Below are positions 51,767 to 64,000 of a DNA stretch of 64,000 bases, piece by piece. The notes beneath the pieces are model-generated. The model had not been told where the DNA came from. It saw only the letters and a list, made by a program, of their open reading frames with translations, and did no database searches. A program made the position numbers and the translations under genes. Each line of letters starts with the position of its first letter. Position 1 is the stretch's first letter. This DNA comes from a virus. Where the stretch lies: the IMG/VR virus record IMGVR_UViG_3300031962_000001, positions 28,915-92,914 of that record; one strand, 5' to 3'.

Positions 51767-52477
51767 ATGAAAAAGAAGATTCGTAGATTCCCGCGTCTTA
51801 GCCCACGCAGGTTTCCGCGTCTGCCTGAGGATTTTCCAGAACTTGTGCCAAAGAAGAAGAAAATGTTCATGGGAGTCAGCGTCGAAGGCGGCAGGATTCC
51901 CAGAAACTATAACAAGTTAACAAAGAAACAGAAGCGGGCTATCAGGCTCGTAGTCAACGGCATGACCATCAATGACATGTGCCGCAAAGTAGATATCCAT
52001 CACAACACGTGGTATCGCTGGCTGCATCTGCACGAAAAGTTCAAACACTACTATCTACGCTACGCTAACAAGCAGGCGCTAGTCACAGAAGGGAGGCTGG
52101 ACGCGAAGGTTGGCAGAGCAGTGCAGGTCGTAGAAAGTTCGTTAGACAGCGCCGATCCGTACTTCGCACACGACGCCGCCGTCAAGCTGCTATCTGGCCG
52201 TGGGCTTTACAAAAAGAATGTGGAGCAGAACAAACATGTCAGCGGCTCGGTCATGCACGGTGTGGTTGGCAAGGTGGAACACCAAATCGTAGACAAGGAC
52301 CTGATGGTGGCTTTCGTAGACGCTCTTACAGGCAAAGCCATAGGAGCGCCGGAACACAAGGAAAAGGTAATCAACGCGAAAGTTCTGAAGAGTTTGCCGG
52401 AGCCGAGGAATGGTATCAATACCGAAATACAAAAAATCGTCGAAGCAGAAGCTGTACGATCAGATTCGACAAGCTAA
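51767..52477 (+). CDS. Terminase small subunit-like protein with two N-terminal RFPRL tags
   Basis: 236 residues. Begins MKKKIRRFPRL, then RRFPRL (51785-51820), before an HTH domain, LTKKQKRAIRLVVNGMTIND plus VDIHHNTWYRWL, like phBC6A51-type small terminases. The C-terminal part is helical. It would bind the packaging start site and recruit the ATPase, whose gene overlaps by 68 nt. The tags precede the DNA-binding domain, so they could add DNA contacts. Confidence 0.7.
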   Translation: MKKKIRRFPRLSPRRFPRLPEDFPELVPKKKKMFMGVSVEGGRIPRNYNKLTKKQKRAIRLVVNGMTINDMCRKVDIHHNTWYRWLHLHEKFKHYYLRYANKQALVTEGRLDAKVGRAVQVVESSLDSADPYFAHDAAVKLLSGRGLYKKNVEQNKHVSGSVMHGVVGKVEHQIVDKDLMVAFVDALTGKAIGAPEHKEKVINAKVLKSLPEPRNGINTEIQKIVEAEAVRSDSTS

Positions 52478-53654
52478 AGGAATCGCTGGCGTTCGTGAGC
52501 TGATGCGTCAGTATATGTCGCCTCAGTTCAGAAGACAGATGGTTTCTTTATCGCCAGAGTTCTTCCTGACCTATTACCTTGGCTTCAAGCTGCCGATGCA
52601 CCAGCAAAAATGGATCAAGCTGTGGAGAGTGAAATATCTATTGGACCTAGCGCCTAGAGATCATGGCAAGTCGTGGATATTCTCTTACGGCCATCCATTG
52701 TACGAAATATACGCGGACTTCGTGAAGAACAATCTGGAAGAAGTGAAGTTCCGCTTCCTGCAAATTTCCAAGACAGACGACCAGTCCTCCAAATACGCTA
52801 ATCAGGTTCGCGAGACGATCGAGAGGAATCCTTACCTGCGCGAAGACTTCGGAAACATACAGGACTCTGACCACTGGCTCAAGGGCTACTTCGCCTGCAA
52901 GCGCAAGGACACCGCGATCAATATCGAGAAAGACCACACCTATGAAAAGACAGGAGTACTGGGCGGTATCACCGGAGGGCATTTTGAGTTTATCAACGTT
53001 GATGACCCACTCGATGACGAAAACACGAAGAATACTGAACGTATGGATTCTGTCGAGAACTGGTTTTGGGGCACGGTCTGGAATCTTAGGGAAACATATA
53101 CTCGAATCCGGGTTGTTGGGACTCGTAAAAACAGACGAGACCTTTTCAACACGCTGATACAGTCGCCGCTCTGGAAAAAGAACATCGAGCGAGCTATTAT
53201 CAAGTATCCGATGATAATCGACAGGTCTACGAACAGACAGATACAAGGCTGGCTCTACAAGACAGACAAGGGCAGGCATGTCCGCAATATGTCAGAGCTG
53301 CGCAGTGAGGAAATCATTGTAGACGTGGAACTCTTGACAGATGACTACGAAGTCTTGTGGCCCTCGACGGAAGCTCTAAACGAGAAGGGCGAAATTGAGA
53401 TGACGCCAGTGATCGATCAAGACACGGGCGAGGAAATAGGTCAGCAGCCAAAAGTGTTTGGGTGGGGGATCAAAGAGCTTTTGCTAGACAGAGCCGGTTC
53501 TGGAGCGTCGGTATTCGACAGAGAGAAGCAGAACGAAATCAACGCCGAAGAAGGTGGAGTGTTCAAAAAGGACTGGCTCCATCTCTTCAATCAAGACCAG
53601 CTGTACCTGAACGATCAGGACTCCTATTTCTATCTCCTCCCGGAGGCAGCATGA
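52410..53654 (+). CDS. Terminase large subunit, ATPase half (split gene)
   Basis: 414 residues. Walker A-like LAPRDHGKSW, a motor core, Walker B FINVDDPLDDE with its Glu, and VVGTRKN (coupling motif) match phage TerL ATPases. The protein stops at LLPEAA, where the nuclease domain should begin. That nuclease is encoded 2 kb downstream (55685), beyond a HAD/ART gene and others. The ATPase motor pumps DNA through the portal. The split at the domain boundary is unusual. Confidence 0.85.
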   Translation: MVSIPKYKKSSKQKLYDQIRQAKGIAGVRELMRQYMSPQFRRQMVSLSPEFFLTYYLGFKLPMHQQKWIKLWRVKYLLDLAPRDHGKSWIFSYGHPLYEIYADFVKNNLEEVKFRFLQISKTDDQSSKYANQVRETIERNPYLREDFGNIQDSDHWLKGYFACKRKDTAINIEKDHTYEKTGVLGGITGGHFEFINVDDPLDDENTKNTERMDSVENWFWGTVWNLRETYTRIRVVGTRKNRRDLFNTLIQSPLWKKNIERAIIKYPMIIDRSTNRQIQGWLYKTDKGRHVRNMSELRSEEIIVDVELLTDDYEVLWPSTEALNEKGEIEMTPVIDQDTGEEIGQQPKVFGWGIKELLLDRAGSGASVFDREKQNEINAEEGGVFKKDWLHLFNQDQLYLNDQDSYFYLLPEAA

Positions 53655-53944
53655 AATCGCTAGAAGAATTAAAAGAAGAGTACAAATCTCTTTGTCATGC
53701 TATGCAAAGTGGTGTGGCTGCGAAGATGAACGTGGACGATTCTGAGTGTAAGCCGAAGCATCTGAGAGTTGGTGTGAACTCTTCGATGGTGGATTCTTCA
53801 GCTCTCGCCAGACTCCTTATGAGAAAAGGAATCATCGTAGAACAGGAATACTACGAAATCCTCGTAGAAGTAATGCGCGAAGAAGTGGAGAGTTACAAAA
53901 AGTTCCTGAGCGATCATTATGGGTCTAATATAAATCTTGCGTGA
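53651..53944 (+). CDS. Small helical phage protein inserted between the terminase halves
   Basis: 97 residues from the ATG at 53651 (RBS CGGAGGC, overlap of 4 nt). KHLRVGVNSSMVDSSALARL then IVEQEYYEILVEVMREEVES looks like a small helical phage protein type common near packaging genes; I cannot give a name. Part of the ~2-kb segment that separates the ATPase and nuclease genes. Confidence 0.5.
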   Translation: MKSLEELKEEYKSLCHAMQSGVAAKMNVDDSECKPKHLRVGVNSSMVDSSALARLLMRKGIIVEQEYYEILVEVMREEVESYKKFLSDHYGSNINLA

Positions 53945-53951
53945 GGAAATT

Positions 53952-55436
53952 ATGACTGACGCCGATCTCCTTTACGAACGCAGGCTTCTGGAGCAGGAGC
54001 AGCAAATCCATCCAGACCCTGTCACGCAAATACAGTACATCCAGAAGCAGCTGCCGAGAGCTGGCGGCCAGGGGAAAGACTACACTGTTTGCATGGACTT
54101 CGATGGCGTGCTGTCATTCCATAGAACCGGCGATTCCATAGACAAGATCGGACCTCCACTCCAGCCAGGAATCCAACTGGCGAAGCGTATCGTGGCTTCT
54201 GGTCTTAAGCTGGTGGTCCTCACGGCGAGGCCGGAGCAAATGCATGACACAATCCTTGGATGGCTCAAAGGCCAAGGAGTCAAAGCCTACGAGGTGACGA
54301 ACATCAAGCCACCAGCGGCTCTGTATATCGACGATCGCGCAGAAAAGTGGCCCCAGAATTTTACTGGGCATAGAGAAGCCATCCGTCGCATAGACGAATT
54401 TGGAACTCGCTTGCTTGAACATGGCATAAAGGGACAGAAATGGCATCATCACAAGCAGAAGGACGAGCCTGAATCCAAAGGCAGAGCCTTGAAGCTGAAA
54501 GACAAAGATATTAGGACTCAGAGAGATTCTCTAGAGCTTGTCAAGCAGGCAGAAAAGCAGGCTGGTCTCAGCGCCTTGATGTACGCTGGTAGAGATGAAG
54601 AGCAGAAGGGAATTTCGGGCGGCTCTAACCTTGACAAATTGTACTCAGAGTTGGAAAAAAAGAGCGATCGTCTGGAAAGACTTGAAGATAAGATAGACGA
54701 CCTTCGCGACAAGAAATACTATGCCTCTAGCGAAAAGAAAGCGGCGATAAGTGAAAAGATAGCTAGCATGAAAGACGAGATGTCAGAACTTAAGGATAGA
54801 GTTAAGTGGCTAGACAAGGAAACGGATAGGCGTGAAGATAGCGATGAGACGGCATGGGACCCTTCTAGAATATATCGCCACGCTCTGTTCGATGCCGCTG
54901 GCTTCTCAGAAAAAGATTACAACTCGTTCCATGGGCATATTGAAGATTGGGCAGACGATGGTGGAGGTAAGAACCATCCATTGCGCCTAGCAGCGAAGGA
55001 AATTGCCACTGGGAATGTCAGAAGTATGAACGCCAAAGGCCTCCTAATAGAAAACGCCATCAATGCAATCTACTATGGCGAGAACAAAGACGTACATCTG
55101 TTCCGTGGCATAGACACGGCTAAGATGGAGAAGATCGTTAGGAAGGCAGAAAAAGAAGGCAAGGACTACGTCACTGTCTTGTTCAATCATTCCGACCATT
55201 GGAGCACCTCAAAGGACACTTCTAAAGATTTAGGTGAGACAGTGTTCTGTTCTAGGAATTTCTTCTATGGAAAAGATATTCTATTAAGCTACAAAACAAA
55301 CCATATCTTTGACGAGTACGAAAGCGAAAAAGAAGTTGTGCCTCTGGTGAAGAACCAGAAAATGAAATTTGCCTTGAACGCAAAAGCTGACAAGGGCAAC
55401 AGAGTGAGATTTTACGATGAAGGAGAATTTGACTAA
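53952..55436 (+). CDS. HAD-like phosphatase plus ADP-ribosyltransferase fusion, with HGIKGQKW tag
   Basis: 494 residues from the ATG at 53952 (RBS GTGAGGAAA). Residues ~45-145: HAD fold with VCMDFDGVLSFHR (D-x-D), VVLTARPEQ, K-P-P and YIDDRAEKW. Residues ~157-165: HGIKGQKWHH, a motif common in phage head proteins. Residues ~215-300: coiled coil. Residues ~375-480: ART-like R-S-E order, LFRGI, HWSTSKDTSKDLG and YESEKEVVPL. Such ARTs are often packaged in the head and injected to modify host proteins. The gene lies between the terminase halves. Confidence 0.65.
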   Translation: MTDADLLYERRLLEQEQQIHPDPVTQIQYIQKQLPRAGGQGKDYTVCMDFDGVLSFHRTGDSIDKIGPPLQPGIQLAKRIVASGLKLVVLTARPEQMHDTILGWLKGQGVKAYEVTNIKPPAALYIDDRAEKWPQNFTGHREAIRRIDEFGTRLLEHGIKGQKWHHHKQKDEPESKGRALKLKDKDIRTQRDSLELVKQAEKQAGLSALMYAGRDEEQKGISGGSNLDKLYSELEKKSDRLERLEDKIDDLRDKKYYASSEKKAAISEKIASMKDEMSELKDRVKWLDKETDRREDSDETAWDPSRIYRHALFDAAGFSEKDYNSFHGHIEDWADDGGGKNHPLRLAAKEIATGNVRSMNAKGLLIENAINAIYYGENKDVHLFRGIDTAKMEKIVRKAEKEGKDYVTVLFNHSDHWSTSKDTSKDLGETVFCSRNFFYGKDILLSYKTNHIFDEYESEKEVVPLVKNQKMKFALNAKADKGNRVRFYDEGEFD

Positions 55437-55603
55437 TGCCAAAAGTAGTAAAGGAAACGCCGAACGAAGTAGTGGTAGACATACGCGACGATCCCGATTA
55501 CGATTGGATTCGCTTGCGTAGAAAACTAAAGAGGGAGAAAACTGATGGCAACGAAAAGACTGACCGAAGTGAAAAAGCCAGAGGTAAAGCCAAAAGATTC
55601 TAG
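55436..55603 (+). CDS. Short charged protein (55 aa)
   Basis: ATG overlaps the previous TAA. The product is hydrophilic (NEVVVDIRDDPDYDWIRLRR, then K/E/R-rich). It overlaps the next short gene in another frame by 59 nt. Only coupling supports it; function unknown. Confidence 0.4.
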   Translation: MPKVVKETPNEVVVDIRDDPDYDWIRLRRKLKREKTDGNEKTDRSEKARGKAKRF

Positions 55604-55685
55604 ATTCGACGACCTTGAGCGAGTGAACAAGAGAGCCAGGAAGCTTTTTCGTCAACAGGAGCCAAGTAGACTGCGTGGACACTGA
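55545..55685 (+). CDS. Short basic protein (46 aa) before the terminase nuclease
   Basis: ATG at 55545 with RBS GAGGGAG; stop TGA overlaps the nuclease ATG (TGATG). The product is basic and helical (FDDLERVNKRARKLFRQQEP). The tight coupling suggests co-production with the nuclease half. Function unknown. Confidence 0.45.
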   Translation: MATKRLTEVKKPEVKPKDSRFDDLERVNKRARKLFRQQEPSRLRGH

Positions 55686-56356
55686 TGCTAGTCTTAAGAC
55701 CTCAACAGTTCGCTGATCTAGCGCTCCTCTCAGACAAAGACCCGCAGGCACGGAAGCGTCCAGATGGGACAGTCATAGCCGACTGGTTCTGTCTGGCGAC
55801 CGCGTCTAGAGTCAACGCTCTGGTATATTTGCTGGACCTGTACCGCGCTCAGATTCCATTTCCAGATCAGGTCAAGGTCCTCGCTCGAGAACATTGCCAA
55901 TGGCACTCAGTTTCCATCGGCATTGAAAACCATGCGTACCAGTGGGCGCTAGGACAGCAAGCATGGGCAATCGGTTTGCCAGTAGTCCCAGTCACATATC
56001 CAGGAGACAAGCTCTACAAGTGGCAGTTGGGCACGCCACACTTCGAGTCCGGTAGAGTCAGAATGCGCGGCGTGCGAGAACCCAACGGCGAGTTGACGCC
56101 ACATCCGGCATTTAGAAGATTCGTGAAGGAAGCACTGGACGCGCCATACGGGGAAAATGACGACACGATAGACGCAGTCATCGGCGTAGTGCTGATGTGC
56201 ACTGGCCCAGAGTTCGTGGCGAAGGAATTCGCTGGCGGACTGACAAAGGGATTCGCCATCGCAGTAGCTGGTGGCACAGGACGCAGGTGGACCATCCCGG
56301 GAATACACACGGGCAGGAATGTAGATCCGTACGACGAATTCAAAAGCGAGTTCTAA
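55685..56356 (+). CDS. Terminase large subunit, nuclease half (split gene)
   Basis: 223 residues with the RNase H-like TerL nuclease layout: FADLALLSD (Asp11), an extended strand VYLLDLYRAQ, IGIENHAYQWALGQ (Glu81), GLPVVPVTYPGDKL, and GENDDTIDAV (Asp159-163). It would cut concatemeric DNA when the head is full or at a cut site. No ATPase motifs. In most phages this domain is fused to the ATPase encoded here at 52410. Starts in the stop of the 46-aa protein. Confidence 0.8.
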   Translation: MLVLRPQQFADLALLSDKDPQARKRPDGTVIADWFCLATASRVNALVYLLDLYRAQIPFPDQVKVLAREHCQWHSVSIGIENHAYQWALGQQAWAIGLPVVPVTYPGDKLYKWQLGTPHFESGRVRMRGVREPNGELTPHPAFRRFVKEALDAPYGENDDTIDAVIGVVLMCTGPEFVAKEFAGGLTKGFAIAVAGGTGRRWTIPGIHTGRNVDPYDEFKSEF

Positions 56357-61303: not shown

Positions 61304-61579
61304 ATGAAAGAATTACCGAAATATCAGTGTCACAAAGAAGTGCAGGCTCTAAAGATCAAAGAAATGGCTGTGCACTTCGCGGTAGATGGAGTATCTATCT
61401 CAAATGTCACAATTACTCCAGAAGAGGAGGGGTACGATTCGTTCGAAGTTTCGAAAGAGTATTACGAGAAGCACTTGCCTTACGTGGGAGGATACTACGT
61501 CGTCTATAAGGATGGCTACAAGTCATTCTCACCGGCAGAGGCGTTCGAAGACGGATACACTAGGGTACAAGGAGAATAA
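61304..61579 (+). CDS. Conserved phage protein of unknown function (KYQCHKEV family)
   Basis: 91 residues. KYQCHKEVQALKIKEM at the N terminus and PYVGGYYVVYKDGYKSFSPA at the C terminus match a short protein I have seen in many unrelated phages and prophages, without a known role. Strong RBS (TAAAGGAG). First gene after the second CCTACGTAGG repeat. Confidence 0.75.
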   Translation: MKELPKYQCHKEVQALKIKEMAVHFAVDGVSISNVTITPEEEGYDSFEVSKEYYEKHLPYVGGYYVVYKDGYKSFSPAEAFEDGYTRVQGE

Positions 61580-61581
61580 TC

Positions 61582-62211
61582 ATGTTCACAATCGTAATTC
61601 TGTTCATACTGGCGGTTCTAGCTTTTGAGCTGATCTCAAGAGGCTGGGACCCGCGCAATACGTTCAATCGCAGGATGCCGCGCTATGCCCATCGCAGAGG
61701 CAAAGTCAGAGTATCCAAGGAAGCTGGCATGGCTATGCTTCTGGCAGAACTTGTTGCGGTGGGAATATTGGGCGTTCTGCTGGCGATAGCTCTGCCGAAC
61801 ATCGTAACCATGATGCGCTATCAGCGAGCACAGAACGCTCTTGTCATGATGAGAGCGGTTCAGGCTGGCGAATCGTGGTACGACATGACATACGGAAATG
61901 GCTTCGCAGATCCGCTATTCCTAGTTGGCTACCCAGGTCAACCTCGCACATGCGACAATCCGAAGATGCTGAACATGGCCTACGCTCCCAATGGCATAAT
62001 CTACGGATACCAGTTCACGTTCTCGCATGGCGAAGATGCGCATCAATTGCCGCCTCCGCCGGGATGTTCTAACGGCGGATGGAGCAGTTTCAAATTCACT
62101 GCAACGCCAGTGATGGGAGGCAGAAGCTGGTACGTAGACCCAACATCCGGGATACGATATTCCGATACCGGACCAGCGAATGCCGAATCAGAATTCTGGA
62201 GGGGAAATTGA
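61582..62211 (+). CDS. Type IV pilin / pseudopilin-like protein
   Basis: 209 residues. A first hydrophobic segment (MFTIVILFILAVLAFELI) is followed by KEAGMAMLLAELVAVGILG and VLLAIALPNIVTMMRYQRAQ (residues ~47-85), the class III prepilin N-helix with its Glu, Pro-Asn kink and amphipathic end. Then MMRAVQAGESWYDMTYGNGF recalls minor pilins/pseudopilins. The Glu is at +5 if cleavage follows G-M-A rather than the Gly. C-terminal domain beta-rich with a Cys pair. A phage copy could disturb host pili or secretion, or exclude other phages (inferred). Confidence 0.65.
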   Translation: MFTIVILFILAVLAFELISRGWDPRNTFNRRMPRYAHRRGKVRVSKEAGMAMLLAELVAVGILGVLLAIALPNIVTMMRYQRAQNALVMMRAVQAGESWYDMTYGNGFADPLFLVGYPGQPRTCDNPKMLNMAYAPNGIIYGYQFTFSHGEDAHQLPPPPGCSNGGWSSFKFTATPVMGGRSWYVDPTSGIRYSDTGPANAESEFWRGN

Positions 62212-62516
62212 TAACCCACTATTGGATAGTCCATCATGTGCCAGAGAGCAAAGGCAGCAAGGAGTTCTTCAGAGTGTTCACCAGCTGGACTGTTCTCCTG
62301 ATGTCGCTCTACAAGTTCCAGACCTGCAGTCTATCGTCGCATTCCGCTTGGCTTACGCCATTCAGGATATTCAGCTTCGCCGAAGACAGGCTCATCATCA
62401 ACGACGTAACTCTATTAGTCCAGCAGGAAGCGGAGCACTACAATCCTACAGACGCAGACTGGCAGATGGAAGAGCCGGGAATGCCGATATTCGAGACTGG
62501 GAGATCGTGGCAATGA
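62208..62516 (+). CDS. Small hypothetical protein (TTG start)
   Basis: 102 residues from the TTG at 62208, supported by the RBS GGAGGGG 4 nt upstream and overlap with the pilin stop. ITHYWIVHHVPESKGSKEFF then a mixed domain with W/F residues. Being coupled to the pilin-like gene, it could be its partner. No family known. Confidence 0.45.
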   Translation: MITHYWIVHHVPESKGSKEFFRVFTSWTVLLMSLYKFQTCSLSSHSAWLTPFRIFSFAEDRLIINDVTLLVQQEAEHYNPTDADWQMEEPGMPIFETGRSWQ

Positions 62517-62803
62517 CTTACATCTATATCAGCTATACCGGAAAGGACGGCAAGTTCCTCGGAGGCTGCTTCAGTCAGATAACCGGAGCTGGCGATAGAG
62601 TATTCCATTGCATAGACGCGAGCGGAATTCCCAGAGAAGAGATAAGCCAGATGCTCATAGGTCCGGTCGCCGAGAAGTCTTTCCCGAAGGATCACAAGTT
62701 CCACAACAGGCTTCTGTCCAGGCAAGAAGTCGAAGAAGCCACTGGTGAAGAGACGTTCAAGGTGAGCGACATGTTGAAGGAGGCAAGTGACTATGAGAAC
62801 TAG
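62513..62803 (+). CDS. Small hypothetical protein
   Basis: 96 residues from the ATG at 62513, overlapping the previous TGA. TYIYISYTGKDGKFLGGCFS at the start suggests a beta-rich fold; helical C terminus (SRQEVEEATGEETFKVSDML). No family recognised. Confidence 0.5.
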   Translation: MTYIYISYTGKDGKFLGGCFSQITGAGDRVFHCIDASGIPREEISQMLIGPVAEKSFPKDHKFHNRLLSRQEVEEATGEETFKVSDMLKEASDYEN

Positions 62804-63077
62804 ACAAGAGATACTCCAAGGCATCAAGCTGAAGCAGAGAATAGGACGCGCTGGCGACGCTGATATTCTGTACGCAATCCTGGAAGTCTTGTTGGACTTC
62901 CGCGACATGCTGGCTCCTACGATGACGATAGACGCCAGCAAGATAGACAAGATAGACACAAGAGAGCTTGACGACTCAGGAAGAAAAATCACAGGAAGGG
63001 GAAGCAATGTCCAGAGCGAAGCACCACAGGAAGAGTTCAGAAATGGCCATGAATCGCAGGAAGACTGGTGGCGATAG
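62793..63077 (+). CDS. Small helical hypothetical protein
   Basis: 94 residues from the ATG at 62793 (RBS GGAGG, 9-nt spacing). Helical N-half (ILYAILEVLLDFRDMLAPT), polar/acidic C-half. Overlaps the next gene by 71 nt. Unknown. Confidence 0.45.
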   Translation: MRTRQEILQGIKLKQRIGRAGDADILYAILEVLLDFRDMLAPTMTIDASKIDKIDTRELDDSGRKITGRGSNVQSEAPQEEFRNGHESQEDWWR

Positions 63078-63459
63078 TCTGCCAAGAGAAGTTCTGAGGA
63101 CAGAGAAAGATACAGAGCTAGTCCCAGTATTCAAGCCGATGTTTGAGCTGGAGTATTACGATGAAGCGAGATTCGTCCAAGTCTTGCTGGAATTCATCTG
63201 CGATAGATGCAGTCGCAAGTGGCATCTGGAAGCCTGGATAGGCGAATCGGAAAGCCACCCAATTACTATAGCGAGCATCTCCGACTATCATACTACGAGC
63301 CTCAATCCTCCAACGTTCCACATCAACCCAGTGGACATCTCAGAATCGGCCTGGACACCATGCATAGGAAAGTTCATTCTCATGACAATCTGGAAAGTTC
63401 ATGCATCGTTGAATCCCACGACAATCCCCGAGGGCAATCGTTCCCCTAGTGGCTCATAG
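63007..63459 (+). CDS. Hypothetical protein with a Cys pair
   Basis: 150 residues from the ATG at 63007 (RBS GGAAGGGGAAG). A basic N terminus (MSRAKHHRKSSEMAMNRRK) is followed by FELEYYDEARFVQVLLEFIC and CDRCSRKWHLEAW, a possible zinc or DNA-binding element, and a small mixed domain. Last complete gene before the repeat-rich gap. Confidence 0.5.
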   Translation: MSRAKHHRKSSEMAMNRRKTGGDSLPREVLRTEKDTELVPVFKPMFELEYYDEARFVQVLLEFICDRCSRKWHLEAWIGESESHPITIASISDYHTTSLNPPTFHINPVDISESAWTPCIGKFILMTIWKVHASLNPTTIPEGNRSPSGS

Positions 63460-63526
63460 TATCGTAGTCAAGTAGAGAGTGGTAAGCAAAGCAATAGAAA
63501 GAGTCTGTAGCGCAGCTTGTCAGGAG

Positions 63527-63929
63527 CGTCATATCCAACTGAGTACAGGACAGAATTGGAGCGAGCAAGAAGGAGCTATGCAGATTCTGTTGGTGCTTGA
63601 GAGTAATCTAGTTGGTATTTGCCAGTTCTATGGGACAAACCTGGCATCTGAGAGCGCTATGCAGCGAATTGGTAGGACAAACTTGGCATCTACCCAATAT
63701 GCCCAGTTCTATCTCTCAGATGGAATCTGTCTAGCTCGCTTCGCTATCGCTCAGCTCGCGTCATATCTAGCGGATTCTCGCTGGCTCTCGTCATATCTGC
63801 GTGGCTCTATGGCTCGCTGGACATGGATAGCCCTCTCGCTCGCTGAGAATCCGTCATATCCTCTGCGAATCTCGCTCTCTGCGAGGGGTAATCATGGTCA
63901 CAGGAGAAAGAGTAATGGTCCGTCATATC
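63527..63929 (+). repeat. Five direct CGTCATATC repeats (iteron-like)
   Basis: CGTCATATC occurs at 63527, 63759, 63789, 63852 and 63921, the last inside the start of the 63894 gene. Surroundings are rich in CTCGCT/GCTCGC. Between 63460 and 63893 no convincing gene exists; a 168-codon open frame there translates into repetitive sequence. Candidate origin, packaging or regulatory region. Confidence 0.5.
63632..63710 (+). repeat. Duplicated GGACAAAC-TGGCATCT element
   Basis: GGGACAAACCTGGCATCT (63632-63649) and AGGACAAACTTGGCATCT (63674-63691) differ at two bases. CCAGTTCTAT also recurs nearby (about 63622 and 63703). In the first copy TGCCAG and CTGGCA can form a 6-bp stem. Part of the repeat-rich gap. 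Confidence 0.5.
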
Positions 63930-64000
63930 CTGGGCGGTATAGTAGCGCATGGCACACTTGGCCGTATTCTTCTGGGATTCTGTGACTCCGGTTGGGGTCT
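63894..64000 (+). CDS. 5' end of a gene leaving the window (partial)
   Basis: ATG at 63894 after a GAGGGGTAATC ribosome site; open to the last base (MVTGERVMVRHILGGIVAHG). Too short to assign. It lies directly after the CGTCATATC repeats, one of which is inside its coding start. Confidence 0.5.
   Translation, partial: MVTGERVMVRHILGGIVAHGTLGRILLGFCDSGWG

What the first reader, a model, noticed from the sequence alone, without database searches (positions are those of the whole stretch)
61582..62211. Phage-encoded pilin/pseudopilin-like protein
The N-helix (AELVAVGILGVLLAIALPNI) and the following MRAVQAGESWYDMTYG are typical of type IV pilins or pseudopilins, with an unusual extra hydrophobic start and a prepilin site that fits G-M-A or A-G imperfectly. 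A phage copy could jam host pili to block superinfection, or attach to the secretion machine. It is coupled to an unknown TTG-start gene.
Basis: partly seen in the sequence, partly recalled or inferred. Interest (0 to 1): 0.74.

Follow-up and report, generated by a model that had tools for sequence, protein, structure and literature searches.

The report
Membrane-tethered pilin encoded by soil phage
A soil phage carries a real copy of its probable hosts' pilus building block, fused to an extra membrane anchor that also occurs in a pilin of a second, unrelated phage but in none of the roughly 175 bacterial relatives checked, which suggests a tool for changing or jamming the host's pili.

Summary
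Observation confirmed and strengthened. Window 61582-62211 encodes a genuine type IV pilin homologue, not just a pilin-like helix. A profile of 102 Acidobacteriota pilins matches residues 54-201 (E 1.5e-11, the only hit in 5,006 ORFs); the globular half alone scores 22 bits against a best of 6.4 in 2,000 shuffles. The AlphaFold model (pLDDT 83) is a pilin 'lollipop', and the best solved-structure matches are type IV pilins. Closest relatives (41-43% identity) are bacterial pilins of one Acidobacteriota order, the likely hosts. The 'unusual extra hydrophobic start' is real: a strong Shine-Dalgarno precedes M1, giving a 49-residue leader made of a transmembrane helix plus a basic linker, where normal prepilin leaders are short and hydrophilic. 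An unrelated podovirus-like phage (IMGVR_UViG_3300044837_000269) carries a pilin with the same layout; no bacterial pilin (about 175) and none of 79 other viral-contig pilins examined has it. Phage-encoded pilins have precedent (P-FimU of Pseudomonas phage JBD68, placed in the host pilus and thought to exclude other phages). Most likely function, inferred: the protein enters the host's type IV pilus pathway and substitutes for or blocks host pilins. Cleaved or retained leader is undecided. New variant of a known kind.

The parts
61582..62211 (+). Pilin gene, 209 aa
   Evidence: Full-length match to Acidobacteriota pilins; AlphaFold pilin fold
61569..61574 (+). Shine-Dalgarno AAGGAG, 7 nt before ATG 61582, inside the end of the upstream gene
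   Evidence: Read directly from sequence
61585..61638 (+). Extra N-terminal transmembrane helix (residues 2-19) in the leader
   Evidence: Kyte-Doolittle 3.26; helix 2-19 in the model
61639..61725 (+). Basic linker (residues 20-48; 10 K/R, 2 D/E), predicted cytoplasmic by the positive-inside rule
   Evidence: Charge count; unstructured in the model
61726..61731 (+). Putative prepilin peptidase site Gly49|Met50 (alternative Ala51|Met52)
   Evidence: Gly49 aligns with the invariant Gly(-1) of relatives; VIA-align pairs residues 50-51 with mature residue 1 of PilA4 and PAK pilin
61729..61893 (+). Pilin alpha-1 helix (residues 50-104), Glu at +7, Pro at +23 counted from Gly49
61894..62208 (+). Globular pilin domain (residues 105-209) with Cys124 and Cys162, conserved in the closest relatives
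61304..61579 (+). Upstream coupled phage gene, 91 aa, phrog_11049 (unknown function); 37 relatives found in IMG/VR without a pilin beside them
62208..62516 (+). Downstream TTG-start gene, 102 aa, overlapping the pilin stop; weak relative in phage contig L004

Best explanation
This is an accessory (moron-like) gene captured from an Acidobacteriota type IV pilin and carried by a siphophage that probably infects the same order. The product is a two-segment membrane protein. A first transmembrane helix (residues 2-19) is followed by a strongly basic cytoplasmic linker that presents a prepilin site (Gly49|Met50) at the inner face of the membrane; the second helix is the pilin alpha-1 helix, with a pilin globular head outside. 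Most likely it enters the host's type IV pilus pathway during infection, using the host's prepilin peptidase because the phage record shows none. There it either replaces or caps host pilins or, if the leader stays on, sits as a non-extractable subunit that jams assembly, and so changes or removes pili as receptors for competing phages. Shown: homology, fold, phage location, leader anatomy and start signal, and the same leader layout in a second unrelated phage. Inferred: topology, cleavage, entry into the pilus pathway and superinfection exclusion.
For: Full-length profile match to Acidobacteriota pilins. Relatives concentrated in one order: 45 of 95 genomes at E<=1e-8, against 19 of 396 drawn from the phylum at the looser 1e-6. 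Best relatives 41-43%. AlphaFold pilin fold with type IV pilins as the top 13 PDB rows. Same layout in a podovirus-like phage; absent from the bacterial pilins and from 79 other viral-contig pilins. Prepilin peptidase found in G427, G428 and G003 but not in either phage record. Related case: P-FimU of JBD68 (PMC12826054).
Against: Only one sequence of this gene exists in what was searched, so purifying selection cannot be shown. Glu is displaced (+7), so assembly may be impaired. No integrase turned up among the proteins scanned, so a lysogenic-conversion role like P-FimU's is not directly supported. The host is inferred only from gene kinship. Similarity between the two phages' leaders is marginal (20-53 of 2,000 shuffles as good). 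G474, which carries a relative of the second phage's pilin, showed no prepilin peptidase (possibly an incomplete bin).
Confidence: 0.55

Rival explanations
1. P-FimU-like substitution: the long leader is fully cleaved by the host prepilin peptidase and the mature pilin is assembled as a minor or tip subunit, altering the receptor while the pilus still works. The leader helix only aids membrane insertion.
For: Gly(-1) retained; residues 50-51 pair with mature residue 1 of solved pilins; P-FimU of JBD68 works this way according to PMC12826054; the second phage's pilin keeps Glu5 and Pro22. Tip-capping subunits lack Glu5 (PMC10191384), so a displaced Glu could fit a tip role.
Against: It does not explain why two unrelated phages carry a transmembrane leader that no examined bacterial pilin has; P-FimU's family has an ordinary short leader.
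Confidence: 0.4
2. Tethered jammer: the leader is cleaved slowly or not at all, the protein stays anchored by two helices, docks on the pilus machine and blocks assembly (dominant negative).
For: Transmembrane leader with a positive linker in two unrelated phages; displaced Glu in the window copy; pilins must be extracted from the membrane to assemble (PMC10191384).
Against: Gly(-1) kept in both phage proteins; Glu5 canonical in the second phage; no experiment.
Confidence: 0.3
3. The pilin domain is reused for something else: a membrane-anchored adhesin or lysis or envelope protein of the phage, or a virion part, unrelated to pili.
For: Lies in the late region after the portal among small genes, some with predicted transmembrane segments; Acidobacteriota also have zinc-ribbon+DUF4190+pilin fusions that have no prepilin motif.
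Against: The prepilin site and pilin helix are conserved in outline in both phage copies.
Confidence: 0.2
4. Recently captured host gene with no phage function, or an assembly chimera.
For: Single copy; absent from the two nearest phage contigs L004 and L043.
Against: Long branch (1.33), so not a fresh copy; intact frame with its own strong ribosome-binding site, tightly coupled to genes on both sides; the same layout in another phage.
Confidence: 0.08

Closest known systems
Acidobacteriota type IV pilins (e.g. L153/L154 in genomes G427/G428; L070 in MAG YF1.bin127)
   Same: Alpha-1 helix and whole globular domain align (41-43% with L153/L154); shared Cys pair; L153/L154 share the one-residue shift that puts Pro at +23
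   Different: Bacterial leaders are short (about 7-20 aa) and hydrophilic; the phage leader is 49 aa with a transmembrane helix; Glu at +7
Second pilin of podovirus-like contig IMGVR_UViG_3300044837_000269 (L178:2028-2570)
   Same: Transmembrane helix + basic linker + Gly|helix + small beta domain ending in ..RSYYADSTGILRYSDT; strong Shine-Dalgarno at the long start
   Different: Only 27% identical; canonical Glu5 and Pro22; sits next to a second, ordinary pilin gene; unrelated phage backbone
P-FimU, phage-encoded minor pilin of Pseudomonas phage JBD68 and relatives (F10 gp011, phrog_11596)
   Same: Phage-borne pilin with a class III signal helix; per PMC12826054 it is placed in host pili and thought to prevent infection by similar phages
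   Different: Short leader MYSRSRG|FTLVELM; similarity to the window protein only over 27 helix residues; different host phylum
Aqs1 and Tip (phages DMS3 and D3112)
   Same: Phage proteins that alter type IV pili to exclude other phages (PMC12826054)
   Different: Small inhibitors of the extension ATPase PilB, not pilins
Acidobacteriota zinc-ribbon + DUF4190 + pilin-domain fusions (L163, L164, L168)
   Same: Pilin domain carried behind extra membrane segments
   Different: No Gly|FxxxE prepilin motif; several membrane segments and a zinc ribbon; cellular

Membership tests
Type IV pilin superfamily (class III signal peptide proteins) | Leader ends in Gly or Ala just before the hydrophobic helix | tested here: met
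   Gly49 aligns with invariant Gly(-1); definition from PMC10191384
Type IV pilin superfamily (class III signal peptide proteins) | 20-25 residue mostly hydrophobic helix after the leader | tested here: met
   Residues 50-72; helix 48-104 in the model
[quoted passage not shown]
   Leader holds a transmembrane helix, KD 3.26. Hence called a pilin homologue of variant architecture, not a canonical member
Type IV pilin superfamily (class III signal peptide proteins) | Glu at position 5 of the mature helix (usual, not universal) | tested here: inconclusive
   E7 counted from Gly49, E5 counted from Ala51
Type IV pilin superfamily (class III signal peptide proteins) | Lollipop fold: long helix plus antiparallel beta head | tested here: met
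   AlphaFold pLDDT 83; VIA-align Z 8.5 to PilA4 (rmsd 3.2, 120 aligned), top 13 rows all type IV pilins; Foldseek E only 0.15
Type IV pilin superfamily (class III signal peptide proteins) | Cleaved by prepilin peptidase and polymerised into filaments | not testable with these tools
   Needs experiment
Acidobacteriota type IV pilin family | Sequence homology over helix and globular domain | tested here: met
P-FimU / phrog_11596 | Sequence homology beyond the N-helix | tested here: not met
   Only 27 residues align
phrog_3433 (pilin, moron category) | Significant profile match | tested here: inconclusive
   E 0.029 library-wide, 7e-4 within its own genome
Type II secretion pseudopilin | Closest fold or sequence to GspG-type pseudopilins | tested here: inconclusive
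   PulG Z 4.5 against 8.5 for PilA4; sequence relatives are pilins

The most novel reading that the evidence does not exclude
Phages of Acidobacteriota carry a distinct class of pilin in which an added signal-anchor helix keeps the subunit tethered to the membrane, turning a stolen pilus building block into a dominant-negative plug of the host's pilus machine: an anti-pilus exclusion protein different in kind from Aqs1/Tip (motor inhibitors) and P-FimU (subunit substitution).
Probability: 0.27. Interest if true: 0.75.

Novelty: new variant of a known kind. Interest (0 to 1): 0.55.

Why it matters
It extends phage-encoded pilins from Pseudomonas phages to phages of a major, poorly cultured soil phylum, and shows a leader layout found here only in phages. 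If the anchor stops release, it would be a simple natural design for switching off pili and would make the question of what holds or releases a pilin from the membrane directly testable. It also gives host clues: kinship of the captured pilin points to one Acidobacteriota order.

Tried and rejected
Chance hydrophobic ORF: rejected by profile scores and shuffles. Start at Met32 instead of Met1: its AGG abuts the ATG with no spacing, while Met1 has AAGGAG at 7 nt; not excluded by experiment. Tail protein: no tail family match; F10 gp011, which lies beside tail genes, is itself a pilin. Conserved gene of this phage group: not found in L004 or L043 nor beside the 37 relatives of the upstream gene. 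Alignment A2 found no close viral relative. BFVD fold search gave nothing. A tree does not unite the two phage pilins (3 origins; long branches), so common descent of the anchored layout is not shown. One genome search was wasted on the same order. In one search, three bacterial ORFs with upstream hydrophobic stretches (L061, L109, L118) were judged chance in-frame extension because a short-leader start is available; a fourth (L132) has no recognisable prepilin motif.

Full report
Setting. The window is the last 64 kb of a 92.9 kb IMG/VR virus record with siphophage features: tape measure, portal, terminase, DNA polymerase, SbcCD, recombinase, major head protein. No integrase was seen among the larger proteins scanned; not every ORF was scanned.

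The observation. ORF 61582-62211 encodes 209 aa. AAGGAG lies 7 nt before ATG 61582, inside the end of the upstream gene, and the next gene starts at TTG 62208 across the stop. Family libraries see only the N-helix, weakly: phrog_3433 'pilin' E 0.029, NCBIfam Myxococcus PilA E 0.09, PDB 8tj2 Myxococcus PilA E 0.15.

Homology. A profile of 102 Acidobacteriota pilins (from loci) matches residues 54-201 with 42.7 bits, E 1.5e-11, the only hit among 5,006 ORFs of the window and viral loci. Residues 98-209 alone give 22 bits; the best of 2,000 shuffles gives 6.4. Best pilin of that set: L070, 32% over 164 aa. Searching genomes, relatives occur in 45 of 95 genomes of one order at E<=1e-8, against 19 of 396 drawn across the phylum at 1e-6. 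The closest, in G427 and G428, are 41% identical by search and 43% by alignment, have a short leader (MRGKISERG), and share the one-residue helix shift that puts Pro at +23. A tree groups the window pilin with these two plus L158 (100/90), on a long branch. Contig lengths suggest G427 is a subdivision-2 MAG; that is inference.

Fold. AlphaFold2 with 25 window or fetched-locus sequences gives pLDDT 83, pTM 0.66: helix 2-19, disordered linker, helix 48-104, antiparallel beta head. Foldseek against PDB is weak (best E 0.15, a minor pilin). VIA-align ranks type IV pilins in the first 13 rows (PilA4 Z 8.5, rmsd 3.2, 120 aligned), with residue 50 or 51 pairing with mature residue 1; PulG pseudopilin is lower at Z 4.5. 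Z near 8 is modest on its own; with the sequence match it is convincing.

The odd leader. Residues 2-19 are strongly hydrophobic (17-residue mean 3.26; under 0.1% of windows reach 3.2) and are followed by a linker with 10 K/R and 2 D/E. By the positive-inside rule this gives N-out, linker-in, pilin head out, leaving the prepilin site on the cytoplasmic face where prepilin peptidases act (PMC10191384). That review describes prepilin leaders as hydrophilic and ending in Gly or Ala, so the end fits and the hydrophobic part does not. Relative to Gly49, Glu is at +7 and Pro at +23; all 102 profile pilins have Pro22, and Glu5 too, though Glu5 was part of how they were picked.

A second case. Alignment A3 found contig IMGVR_UViG_3300044837_000269. 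It has a terminase (E 6e-65), a podovirus-type portal (E 2e-27) and a weak major head match, so it is a phage unrelated to the window's. It carries an ordinary Acidobacteriota-type pilin and, next to it, a pilin with a 51-aa leader made of a transmembrane helix and a basic linker before G|FSLLELM, again with a strong Shine-Dalgarno at the long start; its model has the same build (pLDDT 86). Among 181 distinct pilin ORFs, the only real cases of this layout are these two viral genes; three bacterial ORFs are DUF4190 fusions that have no prepilin motif, and the rest of those flagged are chance in-frame extension or motif-less. Of 79 further viral-contig pilins, none has it. The two leaders are weakly similar (20-53 of 2,000 half-shuffles as good) and the tree does not unite the two proteins, so shared descent or convergence is open.

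Phage-borne pilins in general. In annotated phages, tblastn with the second phage's pilin found Pseudomonas phages F10, JBD68, LESphi2/3 and Ostro. The JBD68 protein, P-FimU, is described in PMC12826054 as incorporated into host pili in place of FimU and thought to prevent infection by similar phages. F10 gp011 has a 7-aa leader and resembles the window protein only over 27 helix residues.

Mechanism. Neither phage record has a prepilin peptidase, while G427, G428 and G003 do. I conclude that the protein most likely enters the host's type IV pilus pathway. Two forms are open: substitution after cleavage, or jamming while tethered. The rival confidences overlap with the umbrella explanation because they are its sub-cases. 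Not shown: expression, cleavage, topology, pilus effect, exclusion, host.

Verdict. The finding is real and better than it looked. Being a phage pilin is not new in kind; the anchored leader, found in two unrelated phages and in none of the bacterial pilins checked, is a new variant worth an experiment.

Noticed in passing
window 52410-56356: The terminase large subunit looks split: phrog_38 positions 255-534 lie in 52410-53654 and 564-706 in 55685-56356, with about 2 kb of other ORFs (53462-55436) between; no Rfam intron match.
   Followed up: partly
L043:10013-13798: The related phage's portal (1261 aa against 883 aa in the window) appears to contain an intein-like insertion of about 370 aa in the middle of the portal frame.
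   Followed up: no
L163, L164, L168 (Acidobacteriota genomes G477, G459, G476): Cellular fusions of zinc ribbon + DUF4190 + pilin globular domain in which the second DUF4190 membrane helix seems to replace the pilin N-helix; no prepilin motif.
   Followed up: partly
window 61304-61579: The 91-aa gene just upstream (phrog_11049) is widespread: 37 IMG/VR contigs encode a relative; function unknown.
   Followed up: partly
L178:1437-2570: A podovirus-like phage carries two pilin genes in tandem, one with an ordinary leader and one with a membrane-anchored leader.
   Followed up: yes
window about 62800-64000: The contig end has few convincing genes and reads as overlapping short ORFs in several frames; it may be non-coding or poorly assembled.
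   Followed up: no
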